NCBI RefSeq assembly: GCF_004210375.1
Contig: NW_027467782.1
Span: 29,491,276-29,555,275, forward strand
Reading direction: 5' to 3'
Source of the DNA: Tachypleus tridentatus
Lineage: Eukaryota > Arthropoda > Merostomata > Xiphosura > Limulidae
Length of the DNA stretch: 64,000 bases
Shown here: positions 35,127 through 63,347 of the stretch, piece by piece
How positions within the stretch are numbered: the stretch's first letter is position 1
How the letters are laid out: each line of letters opens with the position of its first letter
The notes under the pieces: generated by a model
The model's input: only the letters and a program-made list of their open reading frames with translations
Databases searched by the model: none
Told to the model about the DNA's origin: nothing
Made by a program: the position numbers and the translations under genes

Positions 35127-36046
<920 letters not shown>

Positions 36047-39852: not shown

Positions 39853-39939
39853 TCTTTCTGGATATTATCTGATTGTGCGTGCACTTTGATACTTTTTTCT
39901 TTTTAGTATTATTTGTTGGTCGTTATTGCAGCAAAAGGT

Positions 39940-42650: not shown

Positions 42651-42904
42651 AGTAGCATGCTTGCATAATCTGTGTCGGAACTTATATTTGTATCAGTTAT
42701 GTTTATTGGAAAAATTAGTACAAATTGATGTTTATTGTTTAATATGTAATTGGTGACTTTATTGTAGAAATATGTATTCATATCTGGATCAGTGTGGTTT
42801 TAAAAACATTTTGGAGTTGATCTTTGAAAGCTTCGGCTATTTCTTTATTTGTGTGTGCTATAGTATTATTATGTTCAAGTGGAGGTTATTTCTTTGTGTC
42901 TGAT

Positions 42905-43497
42905 TCAAAATTACCCGAAATTCAAAACGGAGTTCGAAAGTACCATCATACTTCAGACCACCTGATTCGACTTACAGAATCAATTACTGACACTTTTAAT
43001 AAAAATGAATGCACTGTAGTTTGCTTTCTCGATATTGAGAAAGCTTTTGACACAGTGTGGCATAATGGTTTATGACATAGGTTACAGGAAATGGCTTTAC
43101 CCCAGCTGGCTGTCCAACTTTCTGAACAACCCAAAGTGCAAAGTAAATGTGAATAGAGCTCACTCAGGGTCCTTTTCACCCGAAGCAGGAGTTCCGCAGG
43201 GAGGGGTTGTTAGCCCTATATTATTTATCATGTATGTGAGTAATATGCCTCTGTCGGACCTAAATTTAGGTTTTGCATCACAGTTTGCTGACGATGTAGC
43301 AGTCTGGAAAAGTGCCCCCACTCTTTCAATTGCAGCAACGAACCTACAACCAGTTCTAAATAACATCGAAGAATACTGCCAGAAATACAGAATTTAAATC
43401 AATATTCCGAAAACGCAAGTGATATTATTCAGTAGACTCAATAAACTGAAAAAAATTCACCAAAGCTCTGCTTAAATGAGTCACTTTTACTGACCGC
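42905..43497 (+). mobile_element. Jockey-like LINE, plus strand, RT fragment
   Basis: It reads 'SKLPEIQNGVRKYHHTSD', 'FLDIEKAFDTVWHNGL', 'AGVPQGGVVSPILFIMYV' and 'FASQFADDVAVW'. It therefore contains the RT palm from motif A to the FADD catalytic box, followed by 'INIPKTQVILFSR'. It belongs to the same family as the neighbouring minus-strand copy but is a different copy. One stop follows 'HNGL' and a shift follows it. The segment 43,035-43,397 is open. Confidence 0.85.
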
Positions 43498-43499
43498 TA

Positions 43500-44319
43500 C
43501 TTCTGCTAATTTTTTTATTTTATTGTTATTACTAGTAGTAGTAGCATTTTCCATATGGAAAAAAGTAACATAAAAAATAAAGAAAAGAAATAATACAAAA
43601 ATGTATATTAAAATGAAAATAAAAAAATAAACTTTCTTGTGTGTCCAAGCATGGACTGTGCCCTGAAACGGGCCAGATGCTATCAACATTCGGAAGAGAG
43701 TAAGAGGACTACTGTACCTGACCCTCCTGGGTATTTAACATCAATACCCAAATACCCACTCAGAGAGATCGAACTCTCTTCAGCAAAGATGGCTGCTTCG
43801 AGCAACAACTGGCGCAATGCTTCATCATTTCTGCCAAGTTTCTCGTTTAAATTGCTGCATCTCCTCACTTCTGATCGACTTCCCGCCTCTTACAATAGTT
43901 TTCTTAAGAATGAATACTAATGAAGCAGAACTTAGAATCTAATTTGACGTTCAAAAAATGCGTAAATTTGGACATCTACTTTGAATATATCTGTAAAAGT
44001 TATTTATTTTCTGTGTATGCACGAAAACAATAATATTTCTATTAACACGAAAGTGTGCCGTTTAAGCAAACCACAGTAATAATAAGTTAGCAAAGAACGA
44101 TTTTAAACAAAATGAAGTCATTTGTTCTAAGGTAACATACTACATGTTTCGACAGAACATTAATGTGTCTGAACAAGTCAAACCAATGTGATGTCGAAAA
44201 TCTAGTATGTTCTCTCAGAATAAATCGCGTCTTTATGCTTAGAAATACTTGTTTTCTTAATCGTTATTTATATAAGAATAATGTGATGCTTCCTCACCCA
44301 CGTAAAAGACATAGCCGTA
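43500..44319. other. Unassigned DNA with a GC-richer island
   Basis: 43,630-43,920 is less AT-rich than its surroundings and open in two opposite frames. The minus-strand frame (43,683-43,868, 'NLNEKLGRNDEALRQLLLE') looks more protein-like. No splice pair or family was identified, so it is left as a note. Confidence 0.3.
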
Positions 44320-45437
44320 AATATAATTTCTTCCACGTTCAACTTAATTTGTCCTTTCAGCACTTAACACGTAACTTTTAAAGTATTACACTTCAAATGT
44401 AAAGAGGTTTTCACAGAATCATTTGTCTCTCATCACATAGCTCAATTCATGAGACTGGTATTCAACGAAAAACGTATTGGGTGATGACAAATATAAGACT
44501 GGAAAGTTACTTTTTATACACCTTTCTTTTCTAGCCGTAACAGAATGAAATCAAAATTGGTGGTCAAACTTCTAGCTACACTTGTAACATTGACAATAAA
44601 TAATTCTAAAGAAAATATTCATTCATCAATTAGCCTGGCTACGTTGTTTGTTCAGTTTAAGACATAAAGGTATAGCTACCAGTTTGGTCTGCAATTTTAT
44701 TTCATTCCTTTAAGTCACACATTTAATTCTTCTTTTCGCCGCACATCACTTTCACATTTAATTTGATTAGACTTTTATCAATACACGTTAACAAATCCCA
44801 TCAAATAAGAAATGAATAAGATCACAACCATATTATTCAAAACGGAACTTTACGTATCTTTGTTTCTTCTCAAAACATGGTCAATAGCTTATTTATAGTA
44901 ACAACATGGAATATAGACTAACAGATACTTGTCATTAACCCTCTGAAATCGGCAGAGCTCTTTGAAACATCATCATCTGTGCTAAATACTTAATATAACA
45001 TCTCCTGATGCAAAATTTAATCAAAGTTTTTCACGTTATATCTCATTAATTTCTTAACACATTGCCTTATAATTTGGTGTTGGAAGTAAAATTCCAATAA
45101 ATATAATCACATGATAGTTTGGGTTACCAGGGTCTGAAGACAGAAAATAGAAAAACGTTAAACTATTACTTCTGTTAACTCTCCAGTCGGATCGTCACCT
45201 TGTCGTGGTGAGAGAGCATGCGCGTGCAAGTAATCCTGAGAGCGATGTCGTCGGGAGGCTTGCGTTTCTGGTAGGGTCATCCATGATGGCAAGATCGAGG
45301 GTGAGGTTCTTGACAAAAACGACCCAACCCCAAGACCTCAACCTGGACTCCTTAACGGCAGGAAGGACGGACAAGGGCTGCAGCAGTTCTACAAGTTCTA
45401 ATCGTCTTGGTGTCCATGCCATTGGACTCGACTTGTT
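44320..45437 (+). repeat. 1.1-kb direct duplication, left copy
   Basis: It is nearly identical (I count roughly 25 differences and 1-bp indels) to 62,211-63,333, in the same orientation about 17.9 kb away. The last 255 bp are a LINE-like 5' segment (listed separately). It ends at 'gacttgttggg', where a SINE fragment begins. Confidence 0.95.
45183..45437 (+). mobile_element. Probable RTE-like LINE 5' segment, left copy
   Basis: The phrase 'ggatcgtcaccttgtcgtgg' and the following GC-rich text resemble, from memory, the conserved 5' leader of RTE-type non-LTR elements. It ends just after 'SSSTSSNRLG', where such elements start their endonuclease domain. Everything beyond is missing. The overlapping open frames on both strands are properties of this GC-rich leader and are not separate genes. 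Confidence 0.5.
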
Positions 45438-45618
45438 GGGGGCGTTATAAGGTGACGGTCAATCCCACTTTTTGTTGGTGAAAGAGTCGCCCAAGAGTTG
45501 GCGGTGGGTGGTGATGACTAGCTGCCTTCCCTCTAGTCTTACACTGCTAAATTAGGGACGGCTAGCACAAATAGCCCTCGAGTAGCTTTGTGCGAAATGC
45601 CAAATAAACCAAACAAAT
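45438..45618 (+). repeat. Family-1 SINE, 5'-truncated
   Basis: It starts at 'ggcgttataaggtgacggtc' and runs to the A/C-rich tail. It is joined directly to the end of the LINE-like leader. Confidence 0.9.
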
Positions 45619-46251
45619 CCTTGACCTCGGACAAGGACACCGCCTGAAGGTAAAACGCTTGACGCTAGCGGTTTCAACAGTTGGTTCACATCTGCTAATT
45701 TCCGCTGCAAGTTACTGTTGATTATATGTGCCAGGCACGCCTTCAATAATAATGAAAAGGTTGGGTGTTTTGTTTTAAGTGGTGTATTTTTTGGTTGTGT
45801 AGTTTCATTCTGTAATGAATTTCTACTTTTCTTTTCGACACTACCAGAGTAAACTCTTGGTTTTCATTTGTTTGTTCTAGATTTTTTCTTCTTCATTAGT
45901 TTCTGCGTTATCAACATCCAAGGCTTTGTTTAAGTTAGTAGCATCATTCGTAGTATTTTTAGTGTAGGAAGGAACTATCTCCACCTCTGTATGAGAAGTT
46001 TCTTCACCTTCATCTTCAGAATTTTCACTTGAATTACGTAACTCTTTTTTCTTCTCATTCAACTGGTGCTGTTTCTTACAGTATGGGTAATTAGTTTTAT
46101 CCAAGTGAGTATAGTAATTTATCTTTGTTCAGATAAGTGAAGGTGGTTGTCGCAGGGAAAGGGTTATAAGTTTTTCCTACACTATTCTTATATACGCTCA
46201 AAAGTTTGCAGAAAACTCTCCTATATCTCAGCTCACACTCGCTAAAAGTCC
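45619..46251. other. Unassigned DNA with an acidic open frame
   Basis: Apart from the minus-strand frame at 45,877-46,104, nothing was recognised. Confidence 0.35.
45877..46104 (-). CDS. Anonymous acidic 75-codon open frame
   Basis: The minus-strand translation is Lys-rich at first ('YCKKQHQLNEKKKELRN') and then strongly acidic ('SSENSEDEGEE'), ending 'AETNEEEKI'. The charge-segregated composition is typical of real disordered protein and unlike the repeat frames. A second minus-strand frame, 45,552-45,746, partly SINE, continues leftward. No domain or splice sites can be fixed. It could be an exon or a transposon remnant. Confidence 0.25.
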   Translation of the reverse strand: MDKTNYPYCKKQHQLNEKKKELRNSSENSEDEGEETSHTEVEIVPSYTKNTTNDATNLNKALDVDNAETNEEEKI

Positions 46252-46510
46252 CCGGCGTTCGACTCGTAAACTTAGTGCCGCGGGTTCGAATCCTGGTCGC
46301 ACCAAACATACTCGCCCTTTCAGTCGTTGGAGCGTTATAATGTAACGGTCAATCCCACAGTCAATCCACTATTCGTTGGTAAAAGAGTAACCAAAGAGTT
46401 GGCGGAGCGTGGTGATGACTAGCTGCCTTCCCTCTTGTCTTACACTGCTAAATTAGGAACGGGTAGGCGCAGATAGCCCTCGATTGGCTATGCGCGAAAT
46501 TCAAAAACAA
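46252..46510 (+). repeat. Family-1 SINE, plus strand
   Basis: It lacks the first bases of the tRNA head. It carries a small internal duplication, where 'caatccca' is followed by 'cagtcaatcca' at about 46,351-46,370. Confidence 0.9.
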
Positions 46511-47419
46511 GCAGTTGAGATGTTAACTCTGATAGTTCCAGTAAGACATAACTAAAAACACATCTTTGCTATCAAAAGCATTATTTGATAAAACAAGACA
46601 GAAACCTAAATAACCAAGGGCACTTCAAAATCTGTTAAGCAGAATTTGAGTAAATTAATCTACGAGACAATTTTTGTGTCCTTTTTCAACCTATATTTAC
46701 TTACACTACTAATACCAGCGGTAGGGAGTGGGTATATTTTATTCAATTTTATTATTATTCAGGATTCCTATCAACCTACCTTCAATTAAAATTATTCTAG
46801 GCAGGATTACACTGAATTAATCTATGATACTTTTGGTACGATCGAGAACATCAATCGATATTAGCTCTCAACTCGATCAAGAGGTGATGAAGATATGAGT
46901 TAGAAGATCGTACTTAAAATATTAATAAAATAATAATAACTTTGAGCCGTTTAATAAGCCGCTGTGCTGCAGCTGAGAAAAAACATATCATATACATATT
47001 ATAAAATAAACTTGCCACTTTGTTTTTCATGTTGTTTTGTTAAAGGTACACATTAAAGAATAGTATTAGAACAAATAAACTACGTTGTATGTATATTTCA
47101 ACTGGAGATTCGTAATACTTCTCTAAACAACTGGAATATCAAATCACGTCAATAATACATCGAACTCTAGCTGTCTTCAATAAATTGTATAGAATACACG
47201 TGCAGTGAGGTCTATTCGAGATGTTTATCTACATTTAGAACAGGTTTTCTGGTTCAGTTGTGACATTTTTGACTGGAAACGTATTGACCTTTTTTTTTTT
47301 TTTACTTAAGGGCTACATAGTGTGTAACTTGTTGTTGTTAATCTATCCACATTCACTTGTTAAAACGCGCTGTGCAGAAATCTGTACAAATTGGCTTGTG
47401 ATAATATACGTTCTTAGAA
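46511..47419. other. AT-rich DNA, nothing recognised
   Basis: A poly-T run at 47,290-47,303 is the only simple feature. Confidence 0.45.
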
Positions 47420-47693
47420 GGCTCGGCATGGCCAGGTGGGTTGAAGCGTTCGACTCGTAATCTAAGGGTCGCAGGTTGAATTATGGTCGCACCAAACATG
47501 CTCGCACTTTCGGCCGTGATGGCGTTATAATTTTCGGTCAACTCCATTATTCGCTGGTAAAAGAATCGCCCAAGAGTTGGCGGTGGGTGGTGATGACTGC
47601 CTGCCGTCTCTCCAGTCTTAAACTGCAAAATTAGGGACGGCTAGCGCAGATAGTCCTTATGTAGCTTTGCGCGAAATTCAAAAACAAACAAAC
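47420..47693 (+). repeat. Family-1 SINE, full length, diverged
   Basis: It runs from 'ggctcggcatggccaggtgg' to 'cgaaattcaaaaacaaac'. No target duplication was seen. Confidence 0.92.
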
Positions 47694-48401
47694 TTGCTTT
47701 GAACCTGAACTGAGGAATATGTTATGAAAATACAGCCGAAGTAAACAATTAGCACTTACATGCGGTATTAGCAAAATACCTGAAATTCAAACGTAAGGCA
47801 ACAAGGAAGTGCAGTAAAAATAAGACAGAAAATCAAAATTGCGGAAATTTTTTACAAAAATCAAGACAAGTATTTAATAACAATGATAAACATTATTTTG
47901 TTTCATCACATATAAAAGCAAAACACGTTTATTTCAAAAGTGTTTTAGTAAATAACTATACGTTAATTGCAAATGCTTTGTTACATCACAAGTGTTCTAG
48001 AAAATTACCTTACGTTTTTTACAAGTACGGTTTTATGTCATAAATGTTTCAATTAAATATTGTTGCTCTTTGCTTGCCCTTCAAGAAGAGAAACTATCTT
48101 AGAATTATAGCGTTTTGTGTTACAGTATAGAAAAAGGTTCAGAGAGACTGTATCATTGATTAAATCTCTGATAGATTTTATCCCAGTATGGAAATTGAAG
48201 TCCAGTCAGGTTATGTGCTGTTACAGTACGTATAGATACCGTACACCGCAGTTCAGAAACAGTTGAATTTTGTACCAGTAAAGAATATTCAGATACATTT
48301 TATCCCAGTACAGAAAGTTCAGAGATATTGTACGACTATATAAGAAACGTGAATTAAGACACACGTTAGTTAGTCTTGCAAACAAAACAAACTCTATGGT
48401 G
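47694..48401. other. AT-rich DNA with a short degenerate repeat
   Basis: The phrase 'cagta(c/t)agaaa' or a variant followed by 'ttcagag' or 'ttcagat' recurs at about 48,124, 48,187, 48,245, 48,278 and 48,308. This suggests an old tandem repeat of 30-60 bp. No gene was found. Confidence 0.35.
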
Positions 48402-50920
48402 CGTCCAATAATTATTTCTTATTTACTTAATGTTTTATGTTTCACAATTAAGACAACTGATCCAGTGGTGGACTCAGCAGATAGCTCGATGTGACTTTGC
48501 CATCGTGAAAACTCACATGCAACTGAATATAAATAAACTTACCGAACGCTATTTTCTACAGACACATACTTGTATCGTAACAATGTTTTCTCAGTTGGCA
48601 CTTCATGTATGCCTAACAACTCATGTTCTCATGAAATAAGTTCCTTTACCCACTTTATTTTTTCAATTAACAGCTCTTGAAGAATGTATAAATAAATCTC
48701 AAATCAATTCAAGTGTTTTATATACTTTACTATCATGTTACTGAGCATAGGTGTGTTCTTCTAATACATGTTTCAATTTTTTTAAGGTTACTTTCAGTAA
48801 CTTTATTGAGTATAATGTCTGTAATATATTTAATTTATAATATGTATAATGTATGTTGTATTAAATAGCTAACTTAAATAGCATTCCGCAAACTATGTTT
48901 GCCGTATATAAGACTGTATATATAGAAACTTGCTTAGAGTGTGGTTGTAATAATATTATGATGAACACTTCTACTTGTTCAAAATCTTTAAAGAACTATT
49001 TGGAATATGTAACGGTTTACAATGTAATAGGTCAAACATTAATGTCTCATGTGAAGTGTAAATCTATGTTATTATGTTTATCAGTTTTTCGTTTTATTCA
49101 CTTTTTCATCATGATTATTCAACATTATAAGTTTGATATCTTGTTTGGAAACAACCTAAACTTTATGGGAAATTGTCGACATTATGACTGATAACAAGTA
49201 TAAAAGTTATTTTCAATTACCTATATTAGTCACTCAATTAATTATCAAATTCTGATCCCCATTGGTTGATAAGATCAGAAGCTACTGAATATAACAAACT
49301 GCTATACTTTTAACAGTTTTGATGAATCTTATTAAACTCGACAATAAAATGTCATATTGTTTTCCTATATCACAATAAAACATTAAAAATGCAGAAAACC
49401 TGGAAATGTTACGTAAAGTAAAGCCAGTGATTTCGTTCCTCCATACTGTTTCAAATAACTAATAAAAAGGAAACGATGAAAATAGATCAATGAATCAATA
49501 GATAAATAATCTGAAACCATGATTTAATTTGATAAATGTAAGTTTCCTATCAAAAATTTTCTGGAATATAGCGTCATATAGTTTTACTCAAACAGTATGT
49601 GCCTGTCGATTAATGAGATTTTAAATTAAAATTATGATAAAATCACATCTAATAATGGTTTCTGACTGTAGATGTAGTAAAGCATCTATTGTGAACTTTA
49701 TTAGACTGACAACCGCTGCTTTCATTTGTTGAAATAAAAATAGGTTGTTAGATGTTATAGTATCCAATAAAAAAGCTGTATTATGAAAGAGAGCTTTTAC
49801 TCTAATTAATCTTACTTCATATCCCGTAAAAGAACTTGGGGAATTGGTTAATTACCTAACAAAATTCATCTGTTAGTGTCACGTGATAATGTGACCCAAT
49901 AATATCATTGCATAAGGAGTTTTGAATACTGTTCCTGAGATCTTTTGCAATATTACTTTGACCTAATAACTTAAATTCCATACAAGTTATTTTGCTTTTA
50001 CAAATAGATTTTCCATAAGATACGCAGACTTCGAAATTAATATTCATTTTTTTCTATCACAAAGAAATTGTTTACAAATTGGTAACAAACTCTAACTTAG
50101 TTTAATTTATTATTTCCTTTATCACAATGAATACTTTTATTATAATGTTTCTGAAGAAAAATATAAACTGATGAAAGAAAATAACATTGATAACAAATGA
50201 ATTTATATCTTTATTCATCAAGAATTTTTTGGAAATACTCGTCTTTTATTTTCAAAACTATATGTTGTAGTCTTTCTTTTTTTTAAATGTATTAGCTTGG
50301 TATCAGTTGACTCTATGAAGCCATTGTTTCTTTATCCAGTGTTTATTACTTTGTATGATACAAGAATTTCGAACGTACCGCATAACCAGTAGTACCAGAT
50401 ACATATGTTAAAATTGTGTAGAACACCTTTCACGCTTCTTTTGGAACAATTAATGTATAGTTGTACCGTTCATAGACTTTGTTCCTAGCAGTGTTTTTAG
50501 TTCATTTTATATTATTGCAATAAACTAATGAACGTTTATTTTTTTTCTTTGGAATTTCGCACAAAGCTACTCGAGGGCTATCTGTGCTAGCCGTCCCTAA
50601 TTTAGTAGTGTAAGACTAGAGGGAAGGCAGCTAGTCATCACCACCCACCGCCAACTCTTGGGCTACTCTTTTACCAACGAATAGTGGGATTGACCGTCAC
50701 ATTATAACGCCCCACGGCTGGGAGGGTGAGCATGTTTGGCGCGACTCGGGCGCGAACCCGCGACCCTCAGATTACGAAGCGCACGCCTTAACGCACTAGG
50801 CCATGCCAGGCCCTAATGAACGTTTATATGAAAGAAAACGTGTAACAAAAATAATACTTCCTTACAACCTGGTAGAAGACAAGGTCACTAATAGAGAAAC
50901 ATTAATTTTTTAAACAAATA
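48402..50920 (+). repeat. Dispersed long repeat, copy 2
   Basis: It is homologous over its length to copy 1 (from 48,605) and copy 3 (to about 50,100). The left 200 bp, shared only with copy 3, contain a family-2 SINE remnant ('gactcagcagatagc', 48,473). It is interrupted by a family-1 SINE at 50,540-50,812. It is the most diverged of the three copies. Confidence 0.85.
50540..50812 (-). repeat. Family-1 SINE, minus strand, perfect 15-bp target duplication
   Basis: It is a full-length, near-consensus copy. 'ctaatgaacgtttat' flanks it at 50,525-50,539 and 50,813-50,827. It is a young insertion inside repeat copy 2. Confidence 0.98.
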
Positions 50921-51330
50921 TTTTAGAAGCCTCGTAATATTTTGCTTAATTATAAGAAGAGTGATACAGGTTACAGTGAAGTTTCAGTACTCACGTGCAT
51001 AAAACAATGATGATTATAGAACAACAATGATTCTATAAAACATGTTGAGAAAGTCTCCGCTGCTCGTTTAGCGTTTGGTTTAGACTGTAATTAGTTGACG
51101 CTATTAGCTGGCTTATAGATTAAATATCGATAACAAAAATGTGAGTACAGATAAAAGATGAATATCAGGGTCAAACATTTCACCACGTGGTAATAGTTCT
51201 TCTAGAACATTTCTTCTTCGAATTGTCAACACTCGAAATATCTTTTACATAAACTAACTTAAGCAAGCATTTCAATATGTTTCGAAAAATGTTCCTGGAA
51301 CAGGAGAAATACACAGAGAGATTAACGAAA
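50921..51330. other. AT-rich DNA, nothing recognised
   Basis: This is a spacer between repeat copy 2 and the paralog-A locus. Confidence 0.4.
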
Positions 51331-53790
51331 GTTTTCTTTTAAGTATAAATTACACTTTATTTCTTACTTGATTCAGTTTATTGTTTTGTGTTTTCTATAA
51401 CCACGAAATAATGAAACTAAATTTCAATACAATTTTTATTTCAATATTCAGTGTACAATAAGTTCAAGAATATATTTTTCTTGTACTATATAACCTTCTG
51501 GTGTTATTTGAATAAAGGTAAGACTTCAGAATATCATTTCTATCAGCGAGAATCCGGATCCTAAAAAGCAGTGAAAAAAGAAAACGTATAAGAACTTTCA
51601 TATCAATTGAATTAAAACCACAGAATTGTCGATGTTGTTAAAAGTAAGTTATTTTATTAACTGTATTATTATTATTTTATTATTAATATATATATATATA
51701 TATACGTAATTTTTCTATTTATTTATGTTCAATTTACATAAAATGTTTATATAATAGACTGACATATAAATCTCTGTGTAAGAAGTAACGTATCACACAG
51801 GCTATTCCACTTATGTATTTCAACCTTTTTCTTCACAGTTACATGTAAAGTAGAAGTTCCAATGTCACCCTTTAATAAAACTGAAAATTTCTTATTCTGT
51901 ACAAATACAACAGTCCTTTCTCATTTTCCAACGAGTTAGCAATGACTTGAGTGAATTTAATCACTAATATCTGGACTCGGTTCTATGCAATTACAAATTT
52001 CTCATACCCCAATGTGTAGCTTTACTTTAAGAAAACAACTTGGCCTGAGGCCCTTATGTTTCTCATTTCAGAACTAATAATTTTTTAATGTGTAGAAATT
52101 TTAAGCTCACAGACATTACACATTAATTAGAAAACAATTTACTTTTTTTAACCTTAATAGAGAAGCATTTTTTTTAATATTCAGAACTTTTAAAAACATT
52201 AAAGTTAACAAAGCAGATTCTTCCAAAAATTAACAAACCACTGACGATATTGTATGACAGTTATTAAAAGAGCATACTATGCATTTTTATATCATGTGAA
52301 ACAATATTCACATTAATAAAAGAAATATTACATAAGTCAAGAATTTTGGTCTACACTCTGACCAGTGAAAGTGCAAGCACGTTTGATTCGATAGGAATTT
52401 GAACAGGCGATCTACAGACTCACAAGTCGAGTTTAATGTTAAATGGTTAAATTGATTAACTTTATTCCAAACGCTTTGGTATTTAAATTTTGATATACTC
52501 ACATATTTTTATGAACTTCAACATCGAAATTAATTGACCTCTTACCAATTATCATCCAGCAGTGTGATTTTATGCATCCAAATAAAAATTTCATTTCTTC
52601 TTAGTTCACTATCCAATCTTCTTCCTCTTCGATTAGTTCCGAATTGCATTTCTGATTGTCTTGCTGTTCGTGTTCTTCTTTCCAACCCATCTCTTAAGTT
52701 AAGGCCACTGTCAAAACCCAAGCCAAAGTATGGGTCTTTTCCAAACACATTCTTTTGTATTTTCCATTTCCACTACCTATTACAAAACCTGGTTTACTGG
52801 TGAAACCACTTTTATTCCTGTCTCTATCGACAGCGCTCCTATTTCACTTTTTATCTCCATGACCACCATAACCATTGTGGATGTTTTCGATTATTTCGTT
52901 TATAGCGTAACTTCCGACAGTGTAGACGATAATAATGAAAAGTAGAAAGAAAACCTGAAAAAATAAAAAATCATTTTCCTCATGAAACTATGACCAATAA
53001 AACACAAACTAGTTACTCTGTGAGAAAGTTGTATAGATCCATAGTTATTTTACAGACACAAACACAAACTAGTAGAATGTAACTTAGCCTATCGTATAAC
53101 AATTTCCCCATAAAGCTTTAAGATTTTATGTTAAAATGTTCTTGTGTAGAAAAGATTACTATAAAATAAATGGCATTATTCTTCTATAGTCTAAATCGTT
53201 TAGCCTAACTTGTATTAATAATTGTATTTGAAATTACAAAAGATTGAATAAGCTAGTGAATCTAGTCAACATAAACGTTATTTTACTGGTGTTGTGACAG
53301 ATACCATTCGAAAAGCATGGTGGGAAATTCAACATAATTCCCCTGTTTGTTGTTTTATATGATGAGAACATTTATCACAGTGCTGTTTTACTGGGAATTC
53401 TTTCATACTCTTTATAAATACCTTTTTAAGAATTACGTTGTCTATTTATATCTCAACTACAATGTCCCGAAATTTGATCAGTAATTAATTTTTGTCTAAT
53501 TCTCTCATATTATTCTGCATAGAGAAGTGCTACTTTTTATATTGAAATGATACCATGCAAAAAATACAACTATTTGTCTCCGGTGAGTTGTGTTACAGTT
53601 TTACCGATAATTAACTTATAGAATAAACTGTAGAACACTTTCCACTGTCCTCATTAGATAGCGATAAGGTAAAAGACGTTGATAGCAGCTGTAAGTTAAA
53701 CTGTTATATTAAAAGCATTCTTCAACTTTTCGTATTTACATAATGTGGGGATATGAACGAAACTCTCGTATCATACCGAAGGCCATAGCT
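51330..53790 (-). repeat. Tandem locus duplicate, unit 1 (paralog A)
   Basis: Both the coding exon and the non-coding parts match unit 2 (58,440-61,870) in the same order. These include the 3' exon region (51,350-51,640 versus 58,450-58,720), intron 1 (53,090-53,420 versus 61,150-61,500) and the promoter/exon 1 (53,630-53,770 versus 61,690-61,850). Unit 2 is longer mainly because of SINE insertions in intron 2. Confidence 0.9.
52547..53654 (-). pseudogene. Secreted-peptide paralog A, decayed
   Basis: Exon 1 (53,654-53,643) encodes 'MRTV'. Exon 2 starts at 52,954 after a 'ttttttcag' acceptor with a hydrophobic run ('VFFLLFIIIVYTVGSYA') like the signal peptide of gene C, then 'ENIHNGYGGHGDKK'. 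Against gene C, the exon-1 donor reads GA where C has GT. The frame closes at 52,846-52,844, about 40 codons in, and both TATA boxes are degraded. Further on, 'NKSGFTSKPGF' and, in another frame, 'FGLGFDSGLNLRDGLERR' still echo the family. A potential donor lies near 52,545, and the 3' exon acceptor at 51,561 is retained. I infer a once-working duplicate now lost. An alternative first exon restoring expression cannot be excluded. Confidence 0.75.
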
Positions 53791-53974
53791 GTGAGTTACG
53801 AAATCTTCACTTCGTCGAAAAGTAAATTACAGAATTATTCGTTTCTCTTTCTTACAATCAATTATTTCAAAGATATTTATGTTATGTTTTTGTGAAACTT
53901 TCACTCTGAGTTTATTTATAACTACATGATGTGTAAAGTTCTCATTTTACTTAGATTATACGTTACACGGTAGT

Positions 53975-55617
53975 TCCAATAATAATTTCATATTTACTTA
54001 ATGTTCTATGTTACACAGTAGAGACAACTGAATATATGGAAGCCTCAAACAGATAGCCCGATGTGGCTTTGCTAAAATAAAAGAACACATACAACTGAAG
54101 ATAAATAAACTTACCGATCGCTATTCTCTATTGACAGGCACTTATGTCATTACAGTTTCTTCCCAGTTGGTATAGAATGTAAGAGTAACCTCTCATGTTC
54201 TCGTTAAATAAGTTCCTTTATCCATATTATATTTTCAATTAAAAGCTATTTAAGAATGTCTAGATAGTTTTGAAATCAATGCAAATGTTTGATATACTTT
54301 ACTATCATGTTTCCGAGTCATTGGTATGTGCTTCGTGTGGTATCTTCCATTCTTTTTTAAGGTTATTTTTTTAATTATAATGTCGGTAGTATATTTAATT
54401 TATAATGTCTATAAGTTATATTGTATGAAATGGAGATCGTAAATAGTATTCCGCAAACTATATTTGCCGTATACAAGCCGATCTGTAAAGAAACACGCAT
54501 TCATCAATAGATATTACACATATATCGTGTAGTTGTAATACTATTATGATAAACTCTTCAACTTCTTGAAAATCTCTGCAAACTAATAAAAAAGTGCAAC
54601 GGTTAACAATGTAATAGGTCTAACAATAACGTCTCATGTTAACTGTAAATGAATGTTATAATGTTTATCAGTTTTTTATTTTATTCTCTTTTTTATAATT
54701 ACACTACATTATTAGCTTGATATCTTGTTTCAACGTAACCTAGATCTTATGGGATATTGTTTATATTTGGCCTGTTAATAAGTAGAAATCTTATTCTGTA
54801 TTAATCCCTAGATTTATTATCTAATTCTGATCATTTTTGGTTCATCAGATCAGAAGTTTGTGAATATAGCAAAACCGTTTGTGCTTTTAAGAGTTTTGAT
54901 AAATGTTACTAACTTTACTTACTGCATCACAGTAAAACTGTAACCATGCAGAAAATATGGAAGTGCTAAGGTAAAGTATGGCCAATGTCCTTTTCTTCCA
55001 TACTGTTTTAGTTACTTATTGAAAAGGAAACGATTAAAATAGGTCAAGAAAAATACTATATGTTGGGACTCGAATTGCCAAACATAGAAAAATCTATAAA
55101 TTTAAGTTTTATTTTTTTAATGTTCTGAAACCATGATTTCATTTGATAAATGGAAGTTTCCTATAAAAAAAAAAAGGTTATTGAATATAGCGCCATCTAG
55201 TTTTACTGAAACAGTATAAAAGGAAAGAAAAAGATTGTTTTGTGTATGTGCCTGTTGACTAAGGAGATTTTAATTTAAGATTATTATAAAATTACGTCTA
55301 ATAATGATTTCTGACTGTAGATGGTTGTAAAGATTAGTAGCAAACTTTAATTAATCAGACGGTCACTGCTTTCATTTGTTAAAATGAAAATAGGTCGTTA
55401 GATGCCACAGTATAAAGTAAAAAATAGTATTATGAAAGAAAGCTTCTTCAGTCGCCAGTCACACATCATATCCCATAACGTATTTTGAGGATTGGTTGTT
55501 TAAGTATTAACATTGATCTGTTAATGTCACGTGAGTGCGTGGCCCAATAATATCATCGCATTAAGGGAGAAAAGAAACCCTTACTTAGATTTATTTATTA
55601 TTTCCCTCATCACAGTG
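53975..55617 (+). repeat. Dispersed long repeat, copy 3
   Basis: It matches copy 2 from its left edge and copy 1 from about 54,180, and is closer to copy 1. Relative to copy 1, about 180 bp is missing around 55,565. The right end ('atttattatttccctcatca') runs directly into the coding exon of paralog B. The left edge carries a family-2 SINE remnant (54,040-54,085). Confidence 0.85.
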
Positions 55618-55840
55618 ACTCTTCCTAACCGTTTCTTATTGTCTCCTTTATTTCTATTACTTTTATGAAAATTTGGATCACCGTTACTCCCATATCTGTC
55701 ATTACCGTTCGCACACCCCCTTTTGTTTCCGAGATCACTGCAACCATCGTGGATGTTCCGGTGTGTATCGTTATTTCCGTTCTTAGCGTAACTTTTTAGA
55801 GTGCAGACCACTATAACCAAAAGCAAAAGTTATTATTTGT
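55581..55840 (-). pseudogene. Secreted-peptide paralog B, truncated and fused to a repeat
   Basis: The minus-strand frame starts with a hydrophobic run ('LLLVIVVCTLKSYA') aligned to the signal peptide of gene C, then 'KNGNNDTHRNIHDGCSD', matching 'KNGNSKNIRNIYDGFGD' of C, and later 'NKGDNKK' against 'NGKGNKK'. No AG acceptor is left at the position where A and C have one, and no exon 1 was found upstream. The last dozen codons ('VTVMREIINKSK') and the stop come from repeat copy 3, because the same DNA occurs in copy 1 at about 37,310-37,335. Unlike C it contains cysteines. It is probably non-functional. Confidence 0.7.
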
Positions 55841-56380
55841 TAACTGTTGTTAGTCAAAAATATTCCTGAGTTAGTGAAAAACAAAAATGGCCTTCTATAA
55901 AATCAGTTAGCACAAAATGTACTTATTTGTGTCTAGAACAAGTATCAGGTTCCGATCGCTGATGTGGTCATTGGCATCTACTCGTGTTTTAACGGTAAAG
56001 AATGTTTTAGCGTTTAAATGAAGATTCTACAACTTATCATTAATTTTAACATTCGGAGTTGTTAATGGCTACTTATGAGTGTGAATATCAAATTGTGTGA
56101 TAGACGGGATGTCTGCGTGTGAAAATCAATCAGTGTGACTAGATACAATATTTACGCATGTATATAAATCCGTATGAACACACAGATTATTTACGTGTGC
56201 ATATCAAATTGTGTGAGTAGATAAATTTTTTACGTGTGATTTTCAATAAACAGATTGTTTGGTTATTGCTAAAGAGAAAAAAACATAAAATAAACAACAA
56301 ATAAGTATTGAATATGATATGCGAAAAATTTGCACAATATTAGAAATGTCTGGAGAAATAATAATTAAAGATATATAAAT
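55841..56380. other. AT-rich DNA with a short tandem repeat
   Basis: 'gtgtgaatatcaaattgtgtga' and its variants recur about four times at 56,078-56,250, with a spacing of 40-60 bp ('tacgtgtg', 'caaattgtgtga'). No gene was found. Confidence 0.5.
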
Positions 56381-56510
56381 GTGGCTCCCCAGTGGCTTAG
56401 CGATATGTCTGCCGACTTACAACGCTTAAAACCGGGTTCCGAGACCTGTGTTGGGGAGAGCTCAGATAGCACATTGTGTAGCTTTGTGCTTAATGTAAAA
56501 CAAAAACTAT
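56381..56510 (+). repeat. Family-2 SINE, plus strand
   Basis: It begins 'ggctccccagtggcttagcg', has 'aaaaccgggttccgagacc' in the middle and ends 'cattgtgtagctttgtgctt' plus an A-rich tail. Confidence 0.88.
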
Positions 56511-57349
56511 ATACAGGTGTGCCTGGTTATTTTCTAATTTTGTTAACTTTATTCTATACTTATGTTGATCATCAAAATTCCAAGACTTATAAAAAATAAT
56601 TTTTTTTTTCCCTTACACAGAAATGTTATTTACGTAATATATTAGTTCGGTAATCAGTTTTAAACATTTGAAATCAGATATTTCTGTGATATAAGAATGC
56701 TATTATCTTCAGTATGTATACCAGAACGTTCTTTATTCAAATAGCTTACAATACAAATTACTGAGCATTTTTGGTTAGTTATTAAAATAACAGCAGGTGA
56801 TGACCAATCATTGTGGTATTATTTACGGTCTCGAGCTGTAATGTTCGTATAATAAAACTATGTAGGCTTTTTGTATTTTATCCCCGTATACTGATGAAAT
56901 ATTTTTGTTCAATATTTAACACGTTGTTATAAATATGGTTTCAAAAAATGCTGTTAAACATAATTGGTAAGCAATGATTTCAAACAACACTGGTTGATTG
57001 AAAACGCATCAAAGAAGTTAGGTAGATCAGTGTTACAAGTTGTTTTTTTCTCAAGTACTCAAAATTATAAATATATCAAATCCCGTTTTGTGAAGAATAG
57101 ATTTAAATAAATTGCGTTAAACAAAACAGAGAACTACATCAAGCAATGCATGACTTCAACCGATGTTTGTTCAGCTCCAAACACAAAAATCGTTGTACAG
57201 CCATGTGGAAAGGTCTTATTATGTCAACATCATACGTTTGTCATGTATTTCAAGATATAGATCCGTAAAGTTTTCTCTTTGCTTAATCACAACTGCATGC
57301 GGAGTTATCACTAAATCCAGTTTATTATAATTCATTATAAATGTATATA
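56511..57349. other. AT-rich DNA, nothing recognised
   Basis: No gene or repeat could be supported. Confidence 0.45.
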
Positions 57350-57566
57350 TGGGTTCGAATTCCGGTCGCACCAAACATGCTCGCCCTTTTAGCCGTACGT
57401 TAATATGTGACGGTGAATCCCACTATTCGTTAGTAAAAGAGTAGCCTAAGAGTTGGCATTGGGTAGTGATGACTAGCTGCCTTCCTTCTTGTCTTATACC
57501 GCTAAATTAGGGACGGCTAGCGCAGATAGCCTTCGTGTAGCTTTGTGCGAAAATTAAACATACAAA
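57350..57566 (+). repeat. Family-1 SINE, 5'-truncated at the B box
   Basis: It starts at 'gggttcgaattccggtcgca' and runs to the 3' end. The tRNA A-box part is absent. Confidence 0.9.
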
Positions 57567-58440
57567 GAACTGTAAGTATATATATCGGCACAGTTTATAT
57601 ATTTAATATTAACCAACATAAGTTTTCTTTATTGACAATTAAAACAAATTGCCATCATAATGTAGAAATTATTCCAAAAATCTACATGCATATAATATAT
57701 CTAAAATATATCATCAGTCTTGTGTAAAACTCTCTGTAAACATACTTCACCTTAAGTAGTTGACCGATTCAAACTCATACTAACTTTTCAGCACAGATGT
57801 GAACTAAATCCATATTAAATTTTCCCAGATGTCAAAAACCATAAACATATTTTATAAATTGTTAGTTTCTATACTGTTACTACAGGAACTGCTGCAAATA
57901 GGTATATTTGAACACAATTTCCACCAAAACAAAACATACAATAATAAAATGTGCAGTTAGAAAATATAAAATAAATATATTTCTTGTGTTTAAATTTCCC
58001 GCTCTTTTCTATCGCACAAAAATATAGTAGATATAAATGAGGGAAAAGGTCTCATAGATTAATTCACTCTAATCTTGTGATAATTTATATTCAGCACACA
58101 TACTCAGTTGTGTAGTTTACAGTATTTAAAGAAACACAATTTTGTAGTTTAACCGTTCAAAGAGACATACTTGTATAGTTTATATTAATTACAGAAATAT
58201 AGTTGTGTAATTTTAAATTACTTACAAATACAAATTTTAATGGTTTATACTATTTACTGTATAAGTATTTACAGCCCATTCGACTGGTAACACGTTTGAC
58301 TTTCTTTTTCCTCTCAATATCTTTATAATATAATATTAACGTTCAAATATTTGTGAGTAAGATCGCAAAAACTAACCGAAGCAAACACTTGATTCGGTAT
58401 CGCAATGTGTTTCTGGTGGAGGAGGAACAGACAGAAAAAA
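57567..58440. other. AT-rich DNA, nothing recognised
   Basis: Loosely repeated 'tgta(g/t)tttac' or 'tgtagtttatatt' phrases occur between 58,110 and 58,260. No gene was found. Confidence 0.4.
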
Positions 58441-58499
58441 ATATTTATTTTAGGTACAAATTACACTTTATTTGCTATTCAATACAAAGTTTTTCATTT

Positions 58500-58625
58500 C
58501 AAAATTCACTTTATTGTAATTAATTTCAAATATATATATTTTTTGTACACTACTTAATTTGCGAATTGTTAATTAAATGAAGGTAAGATTTCAAAACATC
58601 TTTTCTTTCAGTGAGAATCAAGATC
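58500..58625 (-). other. Gene C, 3' untranslated exon (exon 3)
   Basis: An acceptor ('tatcacttcttag', reverse strand) precedes 58,625, and the same acceptor context is conserved at 51,561 in unit 1. Because exon 2 already contains the stop, this exon would be 3' UTR. Its assignment rests on conservation between the two units and on the poly(A) signal. Confidence 0.5.
58511..58516 (-). terminator. Poly(A) signal AATAAA of gene C
   Basis: A canonical AATAAA on the minus strand lies about 110 bp after the exon-3 acceptor. A second AATAAA lies about 45 bp further on. Unit 1 has the same hexamer in the equivalent place (51,435-51,440). Confidence 0.5.
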
Positions 58626-58789
58626 CTAAGAAGTGATAAAGAATAAAAAGTACTTTTAAAGTTTCATACAAATTGAATTAAAACCACAAAATGTGTCAAT
58701 GTTGTCATAAGTAAGATATTTAATTAACTTTAATGATTTTAAGGGATTGGAGAAGTTTATGTATCAAGAAAAATATGAATTATATCATA

Positions 58790-58910
58790 TATGTTTGCTT
58801 GTTTCTAACTAAGCACAAAGCTCCACAATGGGACATCTGGTCTCAGCCCACCACAATCGAAACCCAGATTCTAGAGCTGTGAATTCACAGACATACCGGT
58901 GTATTGAATT
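58790..58910 (-). repeat. Family-2 SINE, minus strand
   Basis: It has 'tgtttgcttgtttctaacta', 'tctcagcccaccacaatcg' and 'cagacataccggtgtattga' in order. It lies in intron 2 of gene C. Confidence 0.7.
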
Positions 58911-58983
58911 ATTTGTGAAATAGTTTTCATTATACTTATATATATATATATATATTGGTGAAAATAATTAACTAAAATATGAA

Positions 58984-59212
58984 GGTTTGGTTTGGATAGT
59001 TTTGAGTTTCGCGCAAAACTACTCGAGGATTATCTGCGCTAGAAGTCCCTAATTTAGCAGTGTAAGACTAGAGGGAAGACAGCTAGTCATCACCACCCAC
59101 CGCCAATTCTTGGGCTACTCTTTTACCAACGATTATTGGGATGACCCTCACAATATAACGCTTCAATGGTTAAAAGGAGAAACATGTTTGATGGGACGGG
59201 GATTCGAACCCA
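58984..59212 (-). repeat. Family-1 SINE, minus strand, lacks the tRNA A-box end
   Basis: It runs from the tail 'gagtttcgcgcaaaactact' to 'gggattcgaaccca', where it stops at the B box. It lies in intron 2 of gene C. Confidence 0.9.
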
Positions 59213-59544
59213 AAAATCATAAGAAAGGATTGCGTTAAAAACAGCAAATCCAAATCACTGACTAATTATATAATTAATTTTAACTTAAGAAAACAAGCCA
59301 AAACAAAAATAAATTAAACGTATTTTGATTAATTTGTTTTTAAGTTAAAATTATTTATTTATTAATTATATATCATAAACCCAATTCCCTTAAGTAATAT
59401 ACTCCTATTTATTTAGAGCTAATTGTGAAGTAGAGGTTACAATATTTCATTTTTACCGTTTTATTAAACGTGAGAATTACTTATGCTGCACAAATACAAT
59501 AGTTCTCTCTCTTCTCTCAACGACTTTTCGATGATTTTAGGGAC

Positions 59545-59786
59545 TTAAAACGCTAATAACCGGTACTAGTTTATATACGGTGGATGAATTGCAATAAACC
59601 ACTGTGTAGCTTTGCACTAAAAGAACACGTGTGCTAACACCTTTATGATTCTCATTGCATACTTAACATATTGTTTAATGTGTATTAATTTTGAGTTCTT
59701 ATACATTACGCATACGCACAACAAGTACCAAATTCCGGTTTCCACTGGTGTAAAACCGCTGACTTACCTCTCTGCCACGTGGGGGT
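59545..59786. repeat. Two degenerate family-2 SINE pieces
   Basis: A plus-strand tail-like piece ('accactgtgtagctttgcac', 59,598-59,620) and a minus-strand head-like piece ('ctgacttacctctctgccac', 59,759-59,778) are recognisable. Both are old. Confidence 0.4.
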
Positions 59787-59882
59787 AAATGTCGGTCAGT
59801 CAATAAGTTTCTGTTCAAATATTGTGAACTGCCTCATCATTTTACCTCTTTTTAATTTTGTATTACTGAATTGGTTTCTTTG

Positions 59883-60138
59883 CTTTTTTTTAATTTCACA
59901 AAAAGCTACACGAGAGCTATCTGCGCTACCCATCCCAAATTTATCAATGTATGGAAGCTAGTCACCACTACCCACTGCCAATTCTTAGGCTACTTTTGAA
60001 CAAACGAATAGTGGGATTGAGAGTAACATTATAACGCCCCATGGTTGAAAAAGCGAGAATAATTTGGCGTGACGGAAATTCGAACCCGTGATTTTCATAT
60101 CACGTGTCGAGCATCTTAACCAGCTGGTCATGCCATGC
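59883..60138 (-). repeat. Family-1 SINE, minus strand, diverged
   Basis: It is nearly full length, ending at 'ctggtcatgccatgc'. It has about 20 percent visible differences from the consensus and a short deletion near 59,950. Confidence 0.9.
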
Positions 60139-60149
60139 AATTAACATTA

Positions 60150-60567
60150 GTGTGTGTGTGTTTTCTTATAGCAAAGCCGGCCCGGCATGGCCAAGCGTGT
60201 TAAGGCGTGCGACTCGTAATCTGAAAGTCGCGGGTTTGCATCCCTGTCGCGCCTAACATGCGCGCCCTTTCAGACGGGGGGACTTTATAATGTGACGGTC
60301 AATCCCACTATTCGTTGGTAAAAGAGTAGCCCAAGAGTTGGCGGTGGGTGGTGATAACTAGCTGCCTTCCCTCTAGTCTTACACTATTAAATTAGGAACG
60401 GCTAGCACAGATAGCCCTCGAGTAGATTTGTGCGAAACTCAAAAATCAAACAAACAAACTTATAGCAAAGCCACATCGATCTGTCTGCTGAGTCCACCGA
60501 GGGGAATTGAAACGCTGATTTCAGCGTTTTAAATCCATAGACTTGCCACTGTACCAACTGGGGGCAT
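60150..60567 (-). repeat. Family-2 SINE variant split by a younger SINE
   Basis: The 3' end (60,150-60,178) and the rest (60,459-60,567) form one minus-strand family-2 element like the copy at 28,289. It is interrupted by a family-1 SINE at 60,179-60,458. Confidence 0.85.
60179..60458 (+). repeat. Family-1 SINE, perfect 14-bp target duplication
   Basis: It is a full-length copy. 'cttatagcaaagcc' flanks it at 60,165-60,178 and 60,459-60,472, both within the older family-2 element. Confidence 0.97.
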
Positions 60568-60745
60568 CAACATAAGTTAAAACAGGTTCAAGTTTGTTTC
60601 TTCAGATTGCTTGTCGAGCAGCATGGCTGGAAGGTTAAATTATTTACACTTCTTACGAGAAAAGTGGAACTTTGCAATATTTTCATATTTAAAGTTTGAA
60701 ATATTCAATAATACTTACCTCGGTTAGCTTCCGTTTCTCAACCCA

Positions 60746-61735
60746 CTATCCACCACTTTTTAAGCCAAACTTGGAATGAAGTTCTAAGCCTAAGTCTCTG
60801 ATGGCGTCTCTTCTCAACTTTTTGTTGCCTTTTCCATTTCCATTACGTCTTCCAAAACCTGGATCGACGTCAAAGCCAGGTAGGTCAATAACTCCCCTTC
60901 CTCTCGCTGTGTTTCTTGGATCACCGAAACCATCGTAAATGTTTCGGATGTTTTTGCTATTTCCATTTTTAGCGAAACTTCCTGTAGTGAAGACCGTAGT
61001 CATCAAAAGAAGAACGAAAATCTGTAATAAAAATAAATATCAAAATTATATCTTTTATAAAACTATTACCATTAAAAACAAACAACCTACTCGCTTGGTC
61101 CTTGAGGAAATTGTGTGGAACAAAGAAAAACAGACACACAAATTATTACAATATAAATTAGCCTATCGAATAACATTTTCCCCGTAAAGCTTTATGATTT
61201 CATTGTGAAATGTTCTTAGATAGAACAGATTATTGTAAAATAAATGGCATTATTCTTTTTTCGTCGAAATCGTTTGGCCTAATTTATATTAATAATTGTT
61301 ATTGAAATTACAAATGTTGATTAACTTGATGAATATAGTCAACATTAGTGTTATTATACTGGTGTTGTGACAGATATCACTCGAGAAGCTTGGTGGGAAA
61401 TTCAACATAATTCCTCCTGTTTGTTGTTTTACATGATGAGAACATTTATCACAGTGCTGTTTTACTGGGAATTCTTTTATACTAAATTTGAATACCTTTC
61501 AAAAAATATTGTTATCAAACGTATATTTCACTAACAATATCCGATCAGGTCTCGTATCATAAGATTTAATTTTAGTCAAATTATCTCACATTATTCTACG
61601 TAGAGGGCTGTCACTTCTGATATTGAAATTATACCGTGCAACAAATACAGTTTTTTCTTTCTGATGAGTTGTGTTGCAGTTTGGCATATAATTAACTTAT
61701 AGAATAAACTGTAGAACACTTACAACTGTCTTCAT
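60746..61735 (-). CDS. Gene C: secreted basic glycine-rich peptide (95 aa), intact
   Basis: Exon 1 (61,735-61,724) codes for MKTV and ends at a consensus GTAAGT donor. Exon 2 (61,021 down to the stop at 60,748-60,746) follows a 'tttattacag' acceptor in phase. The exon itself continues to a GTAAGT donor at 60,719. The first 21 residues form a classic signal peptide: hydrophobic core 'IFVLLLMTTVF', end 'TTGSFA'. The predicted mature chain has 74 residues, about 22 percent Gly, 16 basic versus 8 acidic residues and no cysteine. It includes 'DGFGDPRN', 'LPGFDVDPGFGRR' and 'NGNGKGNKKLRRD'. The GRR and KK/RR sites would also suit propeptide processing. The start was chosen because it supplies the signal peptide and is conserved in paralog A. 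Function is unknown. A linear antimicrobial or a processed peptide are guesses from composition. Confidence 0.8.
61022..61723 (-). other. Gene C intron 1
   Basis: It has a GTAAGT donor and a TTATTACAG acceptor and is 702 bp long. About 350 bp of it (61,150-61,500) is strongly conserved with the corresponding intron of paralog A, including 'gctgttttactgggaattct'. This is consistent with a shared duplication. Confidence 0.75.
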
Positions 61736-61811
61736 GTTCGTTGAGCTGCGATAGAGTAAAAGACGTTAAAATCAGCTGTAAGTTAGTTGACTGTGTAAAA
61801 GAATTCTTCAA

Positions 61812-61834
61812 GTTTTTATATAGCATTTATATAG
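61812..61834 (-). promoter_or_regulatory. Gene C TATA boxes
   Basis: On the minus strand 'ctatataaatgc' (61,834-61,823) and the overlapping 'gctatataaaaac' (61,824-61,812) lie 77-100 bp upstream of the ATG. That allows a start site about 30 bp downstream and a 5' UTR of roughly 50-60 nt. The equivalent bases in paralog A no longer spell a TATA box. Confidence 0.6.
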
Positions 61835-61870
61835 TGGAGGGATATGACGTAACCACACTGAAGGCTCTAC

Positions 61871-63333: not shown

Positions 63334-63347
63334 GCTTATTAAAGAAC

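What the first reader, a model, noticed from the sequence alone, without database searches (positions are those of the whole stretch)
51330..61870. A small family of secreted-peptide genes: one live, two decayed
Three minus-strand exons share a hydrophobic leader ending in SFA or SYA, followed by a KNGN-type start and a DG(F/C/Y) motif. Gene C (60,746-61,735) keeps TATA boxes, ATG, donor, acceptor, stop and poly(A) signal. A has lost the first donor, the TATA boxes and the frame. B has lost its acceptor and 3' part. The predicted mature peptide of C is basic, glycine-rich and cysteine-free. I know of no horseshoe-crab peptide family of this exact kind, so this may be an undescribed lineage-specific secreted family.
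Basis: partly seen in the sequence, partly recalled or inferred. Interest (0 to 1): 0.75.

Follow-up and report, generated by a model that had tools for sequence, protein, structure and literature searches.

The report
Relics of giant secreted-peptide gene family
The three gene fragments in this window look like decayed outlying copies of a very large, apparently undescribed horseshoe-crab family of small secreted proteins, many of which carry a short, fast-changing segment next to a likely cutting site.

Summary
The three shared-leader exons are real, but they are neither a small family nor "one live, two decayed". Searches of the window's own genome give at least 229 loci: 154 in a 3.25-Mb cluster on contig C6, the rest on C3, C8, C9, C11, C19 and a second C6 site. 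The host is a Tachypleus horseshoe crab. Gene C is probably decaying too: three copies 99-100% identical to it are frameshifted, and it lacks the C-terminal end kept by C6 relatives. The genes sit in a mosaic segmental duplication.

In 48 main-type copies, mostly on C6, an RxxR site (45 of 48) is followed by Gln (47), a 15-42-nt hypervariable segment and a conserved tail. Segment length is a multiple of three in 45. Segment divergence is 0.285 against 0.06-0.14 in flanking windows. All 11 main-type genes whose upstream DNA aligned keep an ATG, donor and acceptor. Outside the segment dN/dS is about 1, so neutrality of most of the protein is not excluded. No known domain or fold was found. Best reading: a furin-processed, arms-race-type peptide repertoire; function is inferred, without expression data.

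The parts
61724..61735 (-). gene C exon 1 (codes MKTV), followed by a GTAAGT donor
   Evidence: aligned with exon 1 of paralogs
61817..61838 (-). two TATA-like boxes upstream of gene C
   Evidence: TATA-like element at the same place in paralogs
60719..61021 (-). gene C exon 2: rest of signal peptide, mature part, stop TAG at 60746-60748; C-terminal end deleted relative to C6 relatives
58480..58625 (-). possible 3' untranslated exon of gene C (AG at 58626-58627); 3' limit approximate; not verified in C6 genes
   Evidence: the region's DNA recurs in the genome (40 places scored of 122 candidates)
55581..55829 (-). gene B: exon of the short subfamily, open frame 82 aa, no alignable upstream part
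   Evidence: 66% identical to the short C6 type over 56 aa
53643..53654 (-). gene A exon 1 remnant, donor lost
52590..52954 (-). gene A exon 2 remnant, frame broken; hypervariable plan, but a subtype (like L041, L066, L119, L129) that did not pass the main-type score cut
   Evidence: 49% identical to main-type L077 over residues 2-75
52617..52655 (-). hypervariable segment in gene A (39 nt), between an RTARQ site and an LDSEL tail
   Evidence: same segment in L129 at C19:24.77 Mb
44320..45438 (.). left copy of a 1.1-kb direct repeat on one side of the A-B-C genes
   Evidence: 97% identical to the right copy; the repeat is high-copy in the genome
62211..63332 (.). right copy of the 1.1-kb direct repeat
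   Evidence: in the C3 copy it is followed by the start of a further unit
38050..61100 (.). stretch sampled by probes that recur on other chromosomes (mosaic segmental duplication; true limits not mapped)
   Evidence: probes at 38, 44, 49, 58.5 and 60.9 kb: best copies 95-100%

Best explanation
The window holds relic copies of a giant, locally amplified family of secreted, basic, probably unstructured protein precursors in a Tachypleus horseshoe crab. SHOWN: at least 229 loci, 154 of them in 3.25 Mb on C6; a coding layout in two exons whose intron splits the signal peptide (a third, untranslated exon is only predicted); a main type with an RxxR|Q site, a hypervariable segment and a conserved tail; window genes A and C broken or truncated, B without an alignable upstream part; the genes lie in mosaic inter-chromosomal segmental duplications. 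INFERRED: the protein is secreted and cut after RxxR by a furin-like protease, giving a C-terminal peptide that starts with Gln, carries the variable segment and ends in the tail. Duplication, mutation and in-frame insertion/deletion diversified that segment under selection to keep the frame, as in arms-race families (host defence most likely; reproductive or other interactions possible). Gene C is more likely a decaying copy than a working gene.
For: Family size and cluster. Host: coagulogen exons identical to PDB 1aoc over 46 and 48 residues. Gene layout: an in-frame ATG, a GTAAGT donor and an AG acceptor in 11 of 11 main-type genes that aligned upstream and in L041; TATAAA/TATATA-type core in 10 of these 12 (L041 and L097 differ). 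Of three Gly/Asn-rich C6 genes, all keep donor and acceptor and two keep the ATG (L012 has lost it); L040 and L096 did not align. Open frames: 34 C6 matches cover residues 1 to 124 or 125 of a 125-aa exon-2 query with no stop (counted). Hypervariable segment: 48 copies, 37 distinct sequences, length a multiple of three in 45; in 191 same-length pairs of 1128 the mean difference is 0.285 against 0.062-0.136 in eight 36-nt flanking windows of the same pairs. Frame selection: the three out-of-frame segments (L109, L121, L128) each have a near-identical partner of normal length (flank distance 0.003, 0.010, 0.023), while the other 45 are in frame; at least 7 of at least 10 segment indels are in frame against 3 of 30 in 3' flank and intron 1, Fisher P = 0.0006. 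Cleavage motif: P1 Arg 47, P4 Arg 46, both 45, following Gln 47 of 48, while the two residues between vary. Decay of C.
Against: Outside the segment the coding sequence shows no net purifying selection: tree counts on 29 copies (20 multiply changed codons left out) give dN/dS 1.06 overall (P = 0.76), 1.69 on internal branches (P = 0.13) and 0.90 on terminal ones; pairwise values are 0.99-1.29 for the mature part and 1.20-1.73 for the signal part. 13 of 48 main-type copies are broken before the segment. 14 of 17 pairs with flank distance under 0.03 have segments of the same length that are nearly identical, so no active per-copy editing is seen. There are no expression, proteomic or cross-species data. 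The AlphaFold model is uninformative (mean pLDDT 45). RxxR with Lys/Arg at P2 (strong furin type) occurs in only 7 of 48. The 48 copies are a biased subset: the first fetches favoured hits without stops, and one search lists further loci that were not fetched. Defence function rests on analogy only.
Confidence: 0.6

Rival explanations
1. The C6 array and its outliers are now largely non-functional: a once-coding secreted gene caught in a segmental-duplication array that amplifies and drifts neutrally. The in-frame variable segments are relics of past selection. (This shares the structural facts of the best explanation, so the odds are not exclusive.)
For: dN/dS about 1 outside the segment; 13 of 48 main-type copies broken before the segment; many matches with stops; noncoding sequence duplicated together with the genes.
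Against: 34 C6 matches open over the whole exon-2 query; conserved start and splice sites in the genes examined; the RxxR|Q residues are nearly fixed while their neighbours vary; nonsynonymous changes are unevenly spread among codons (variance/mean 1.88, P = 0.016 with an assumed mutability spread).
Confidence: 0.25
2. The proteins are structural or matrix components (cuticle, egg envelope, mucus): Gly/Asn/Arg-rich, repeat-bearing, encoded by many clustered genes, with an intron splitting the signal peptide as in many cuticle and chorion genes (recalled).
For: Gly 13-29% and Asn 6-14% in five proteins; repeat expansions in L041 and L022; disordered model.
Against: No Pfam match above chance level in any of 26 aligned members (one match, E 0.85), so no chitin-binding (RR) domain detected; a short hypervariable segment behind an RxxR|Q site is not expected of a structural protein.
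Confidence: 0.12
3. The genes are cargo of a mobile element or virus that scattered them.
For: Near-identical dispersed copies (C9 vs C19: 99.975% over 3976 bp) and flanking 1.1-kb direct repeats.
Against: Three pairs of boundary stretches and the C3 stretch leave the shared sequence at different points or reach the window's end within it, and the C3 stretch runs on into the start of a further unit; 330 pattern matches in viral contigs gave no confirmed relative; the genes keep an intron and most loci sit in one cluster.
Confidence: 0.05
4. One reading: a small family in which gene C is the single working member.
For: C is open over 95 codons with the expected signals.
Against: At least 229 loci; three copies 99-100% identical to C are frameshifted; C lacks the C-terminal end kept by C6 relatives; the difference that opens C lies in an A-run, where long-read assemblies often err (recalled).
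Confidence: 0.06

Closest known systems
HYP hyper-variable effectors of plant-parasitic nematodes (PMC11228951; abstract and outline seen)
   Same: a central hypervariable domain whose rearrangements are described as apparently flawless; here too the reading frame is mostly kept
   Different: HYP variation is allelic at single-gene loci and built from motif rearrangements, with a proposed editing mechanism; here it is between paralogs, recent duplicates mostly keep the same segment, and no motif grammar was looked for
Conotoxin and frog-skin peptide precursors (recalled; related papers seen only in a search listing)
   Same: conserved leader, basic cleavage site, variable downstream peptide, gene amplification
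   Different: no cysteine framework in the consensus, and the variable part is followed by a conserved tail
Glycine-rich antimicrobial proteins (attacin/gloverin type, recalled; serrulin, PMC6784228, seen in a search listing only)
   Same: small, secreted, basic, Gly-rich, cysteine-poor
   Different: no Pfam match; activity unknown; not aligned with serrulin
Known horseshoe-crab antimicrobial peptides: tachyplesin, big defensin, anti-LPS factor (PMC7011531, passages seen)
   Same: small secreted cationic proteins in Tachypleus
   Different: those have disulfides (recalled, except the two conserved anti-LPS Cys read); here Cys are absent or few; not aligned with them directly
Carcinolectin-5b cluster of Carcinoscorpius (79 genes, ~850 kb; PMC7210998 section 11)
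   Same: tandem amplification in a horseshoe crab, there linked to immunity
   Different: unrelated by name and description (not aligned here); the present C6 cluster has more loci (154, pseudogenes and fragments included, in 3.25 Mb) and is not among the clusters named in that section; its supplementary list of 230 clusters was not seen

Membership tests
Secreted-peptide precursor genes (general) | N-terminal signal peptide with K, hydrophobic core and small -3/-1 residues | tested here: met
   MKTV then IFVLLLMTTVFTTGSFA in C; equivalent in C6 genes. Judged by eye; SignalP not run
Furin-processed precursors | R-x-x-R cleavage motif conserved in the family | tested here: met
   45 of 48 main-type copies; cleavage itself not tested; gene C has no such site before a hypervariable segment
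HYP effectors | variation is allelic at single-gene loci | tested here: not met
   variation lies between many paralogous loci; allelic variation not testable here
Conotoxin-like peptides | conserved cysteine framework in the mature peptide | tested here: not met
   no cysteine in the majority consensus of A1; 0-3 Cys in five proteins counted
Attacin/gloverin-type antimicrobial proteins | match to a family profile | tested here: not met
   only chance-level Pfam matches
Attacin/gloverin-type antimicrobial proteins | antimicrobial activity | not testable with these tools
   needs bench assay
Arthropod cuticular proteins (RR type) | chitin-binding (RR) domain | tested here: not met
Mobile-element cargo | common termini of the dispersed copies | tested here: not met
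   eight boundary stretches do not share one end point; more copies were not mapped
Viral cargo | relatives in viral contigs | tested here: not met
   one scan of viral contigs, no confirmed relative

The most novel reading that the evidence does not exclude
Horseshoe crabs carry a germline-encoded repertoire of dozens to over a hundred secreted precursors, each releasing a different short peptide from a common scaffold, kept diverse by duplication and frame-preserving change. It would be a peptide-based recognition or defence repertoire in an animal without adaptive immunity.
Probability: 0.2. Interest if true: 0.85.

Novelty: new variant of a known kind. Interest (0 to 1): 0.55.

Why it matters
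Horseshoe-crab blood underlies endotoxin testing, yet the secreted peptides described from it are mainly a few disulfide-bonded ones (recalled; three kinds in the passages of PMC7011531). A cluster of 154 loci, against 79 genes in the largest tandem cluster reported for a related species (PMC7210998), with a hypervariable segment behind a cleavage site, would be a large unstudied secreted repertoire. It also offers a test case for how a short coding segment diversifies while its neighbours do not.

Tried and rejected
Mobile element with terminal repeats: the 1.1-kb direct repeats looked like element ends. Eight boundary stretches did not share one end point, and the C3 stretch ran on into the start of a further unit, so tandem and segmental duplication fits better. 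The 62-kb probe lies inside this high-copy repeat and says nothing about the block as a whole; none of its 40 scored places is on C6.

Active editing or somatic diversification: rejected for now, because near-identical duplicates mostly share the segment.

Clear positive or purifying selection on the mature part: not shown. Nei-Gojobori ratios on 18 full-length copies and tree counts on 29 centre on or slightly above 1. A first tree count without the noncoding mutation spectrum gave 1.9 on internal branches; the corrected 1.69 is not significant. The IQ-TREE codon runs gave no omega in the parts of the output that I read, and were not used. The dN and dS of the variable segment itself are unreliable because it cannot be aligned securely.

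Structure: AlphaFold gave mean pLDDT 45, so no fold search was run. PDB sequence searches found nothing or chance-level matches.

Rows dropped and bias: of 114 loci scanned, 89 matched both flank profiles and 48 passed my score cut (both flanks above 120 bits). The other 41 (Gly/Asn-rich, Glu-rich, gene-A-like and other types, and dispersed copies) were left out of the 48-copy counts, so gene A's own subtype is not in them. The 48 include identical duplicates. Loci came from a list made by similarity to gene C; favoured hits without stops, searches took most of the rest of that type, and further loci listed were not fetched. Pair counts are not independent.
Full report
What was claimed and what is there. 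They are there. Gene C has exon 1 at 61724-61735 (MKTV, then GTAAGT), exon 2 from 61021 with a stop at 60746-60748, a second donor after 60719, and a possible 3' exon from 58625. Direct repeats link the C and A regions (694 bp at 81%). Gene A (52.6-53.7 kb) has lost its first donor and its frame, and gene B (55.6-55.8 kb) has no alignable upstream part.

It is not a small family. Searching the window's own genome (2.17 Gb, 205 contigs) with three family proteins gave 150, 150 and 139 matches, each search scoring only its best 150 of 257, 257 and 222 candidates. Many are broken or fragments. The host is a horseshoe crab: Pfam Coagulin matches here and in none of 14 control genomes, and two exons are identical to the coagulogen of PDB entry 1aoc over 46 and 48 residues (the first few residues of one match differ). 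That entry is from Tachypleus tridentatus (recalled), so this is Tachypleus; T. gigas is not excluded.

Gene C is probably not the live one. Copies at 99-100% DNA identity over the whole 401-bp probe exist twice on C19 and once on C9, and these are frameshifted. A small deletion is shared by C and 11 of 12 dispersed copies aligned (not L010, which also ends early). C alone has a second one that happens to bring the frame back, and with L002-L004 a larger deletion that removes the end kept in C6 relatives, where the protein runs on through a Gly/Asn repeat. The decisive difference lies in a run of A, where assembly error is common (recalled).

The main C6 type. Eleven genes of this type (ten on C6, one on C8) had upstream DNA that aligned; all show an in-frame ATG and a GTAAGT donor after exon 1 and an AG acceptor before exon 2, and so does L041, a relative of gene A. 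Ten of these 12 have a TATAAA/TATATA-type core; L041 and L097 differ. Of three Gly/Asn-rich C6 genes, all keep donor and acceptor and two keep the ATG (not L012). Two more genes, L040 and L096, did not align. The precursor is a signal peptide, about 86 residues rich in Arg and Lys ending in R-x-x-R-Q, a variable segment, and the tail LxSELRMNDSLHLDA or close to it. Gene A has the same plan: RTARQ, a 39-nt segment, LDSEL, and its segment equals that of L129 at C19:24.77 Mb. It belongs to a related subtype (L041, L066, L119, L129) that fell below the main-type cut.

How variable, and is the frame kept? Of 114 loci scanned, 89 matched both flank profiles and 48 passed the score cut as main type. 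They carry 37 distinct segments; the length is a multiple of three in 45 of 48. 35 of 48 are open from the leader to the segment and 13 are broken before it. In the 191 of 1128 pairs with equal length the segment differs at 0.285 of sites, against 0.062-0.136 in eight flanking windows of the same pairs. The segment is purine-rich (0.74 against 0.66 and 0.56 in the flanks), so slippage may feed the variation. The three out-of-frame lengths each have a near-identical partner of normal length (flank distance 0.003, 0.010, 0.023), while the other 45 are in frame. In 3' flank and intron 1, 3 of 30 distinct indels are multiples of three, against at least 7 of at least 10 in the segment (Fisher P = 0.0006; the segment counts are minimum estimates from length classes). 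This points to selection for the reading frame while the segments diverged. Of 17 pairs with flank distance under 0.03, 14 have segments of equal length that are nearly identical, so no ongoing editing is seen. The 48 copies are a biased subset (see Tried and rejected).

Selection elsewhere in the protein. Nei-Gojobori dN/dS for the mature part before the segment is 1.29 (18 genes) or 0.99 (11 core genes), 1.20 or 1.73 for the signal part, and 0.68 or 0.81 for the tail. Tree counts on 29 copies against the noncoding mutation spectrum give 1.06 overall (P = 0.76), 1.69 on internal branches (P = 0.13) and 0.90 on terminal branches (20 multiply changed codons left out). Nonsynonymous changes (counts, multiple changes included) are unevenly spread among codons (variance/mean 1.88, P = 0.016 under an assumed mutability spread), and the RxxR|Q residues stay nearly fixed while their two middle residues vary. 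A mixture of constrained and changing sites fits, but neutrality of most of the protein is not excluded.

How the copies spread. Probes at 38, 44 and 49 kb hit several chromosomes at 95-100% for the best copies and the C6 cluster at 74-93%; the gene C probes at 58.5 and 60.9 kb also have best copies at 95-100% on other chromosomes and matches on C6. The 62-kb probe lies in a high-copy repeat, and its 40 scored places include none on C6. Boundary stretches show a mosaic: C9 and C19 agree at 99.975% over 3976 bp, different copies do not share one end point, and the C3 stretch runs from the 1.1-kb repeat into the start of another unit. This is segmental duplication, not a unit with fixed ends; the limits were not mapped further. 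Some near-identity could be assembly error.

What it might do. No Pfam, NCBIfam or PDB relative was found beyond chance-level matches, no viral relative, and AlphaFold predicts no fold. The layout is that of a secreted precursor cut by a furin-like protease, with the changing part in the released peptide. Families of this layout are often in an arms race (recalled). Host defence is the likeliest in a horseshoe crab, but that step is inference.

Literature. Seen: section 11 and passages of PMC7210998, passages of PMC7011531, abstract and outline of PMC11228951. Seven searches aimed at horseshoe crabs and two at comparable families returned listings of 6-15 papers each; no listed title or abstract start describes this family. 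The other listed papers were not opened, most subscription journals are not in the library, and supplementary tables were not seen, so a cluster listed in a supplement could have been missed.

Noticed in passing
window 35167-36149 (+): Exon-like pieces of a dynein heavy chain motor (Pfam AAA_6, E 1e-14 and 3.2e-18) beside the duplicated block.
   Followed up: no
window 41402-41806 (-) and 43020-43397 (+): Reverse-transcriptase fragments (RVT_1, E 3.5e-15 and 8e-8), probably LINE type.
   Followed up: no
window 63345-63900: Sequence that looks like a decayed mariner-type transposase (by eye, recalled) right after the 1.1-kb repeat; shared with two C19 copies at over 99% but not found at that place in the C3, C8 and C9 stretches.
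   Followed up: partly
window 41865-42146, 42381-42649, 46254-46510, 47404-47692, 50531-50827, 57397-57570, 60179-60459: Many copies of one short interspersed repeat that looks tRNA-derived (by eye), about 75-96% identical.
   Followed up: no
L041:2835-3428: A C6 member whose variable region has expanded to 258 nt by tandem repetition of an Arg/Gly/Glu-rich unit.
   Followed up: partly
L040, L043, L045, L049, L050: A C6 subfamily whose variable part has become a Glu-rich stretch; its segment lengths, measured against the main-type anchors, are not multiples of three.
   Followed up: no
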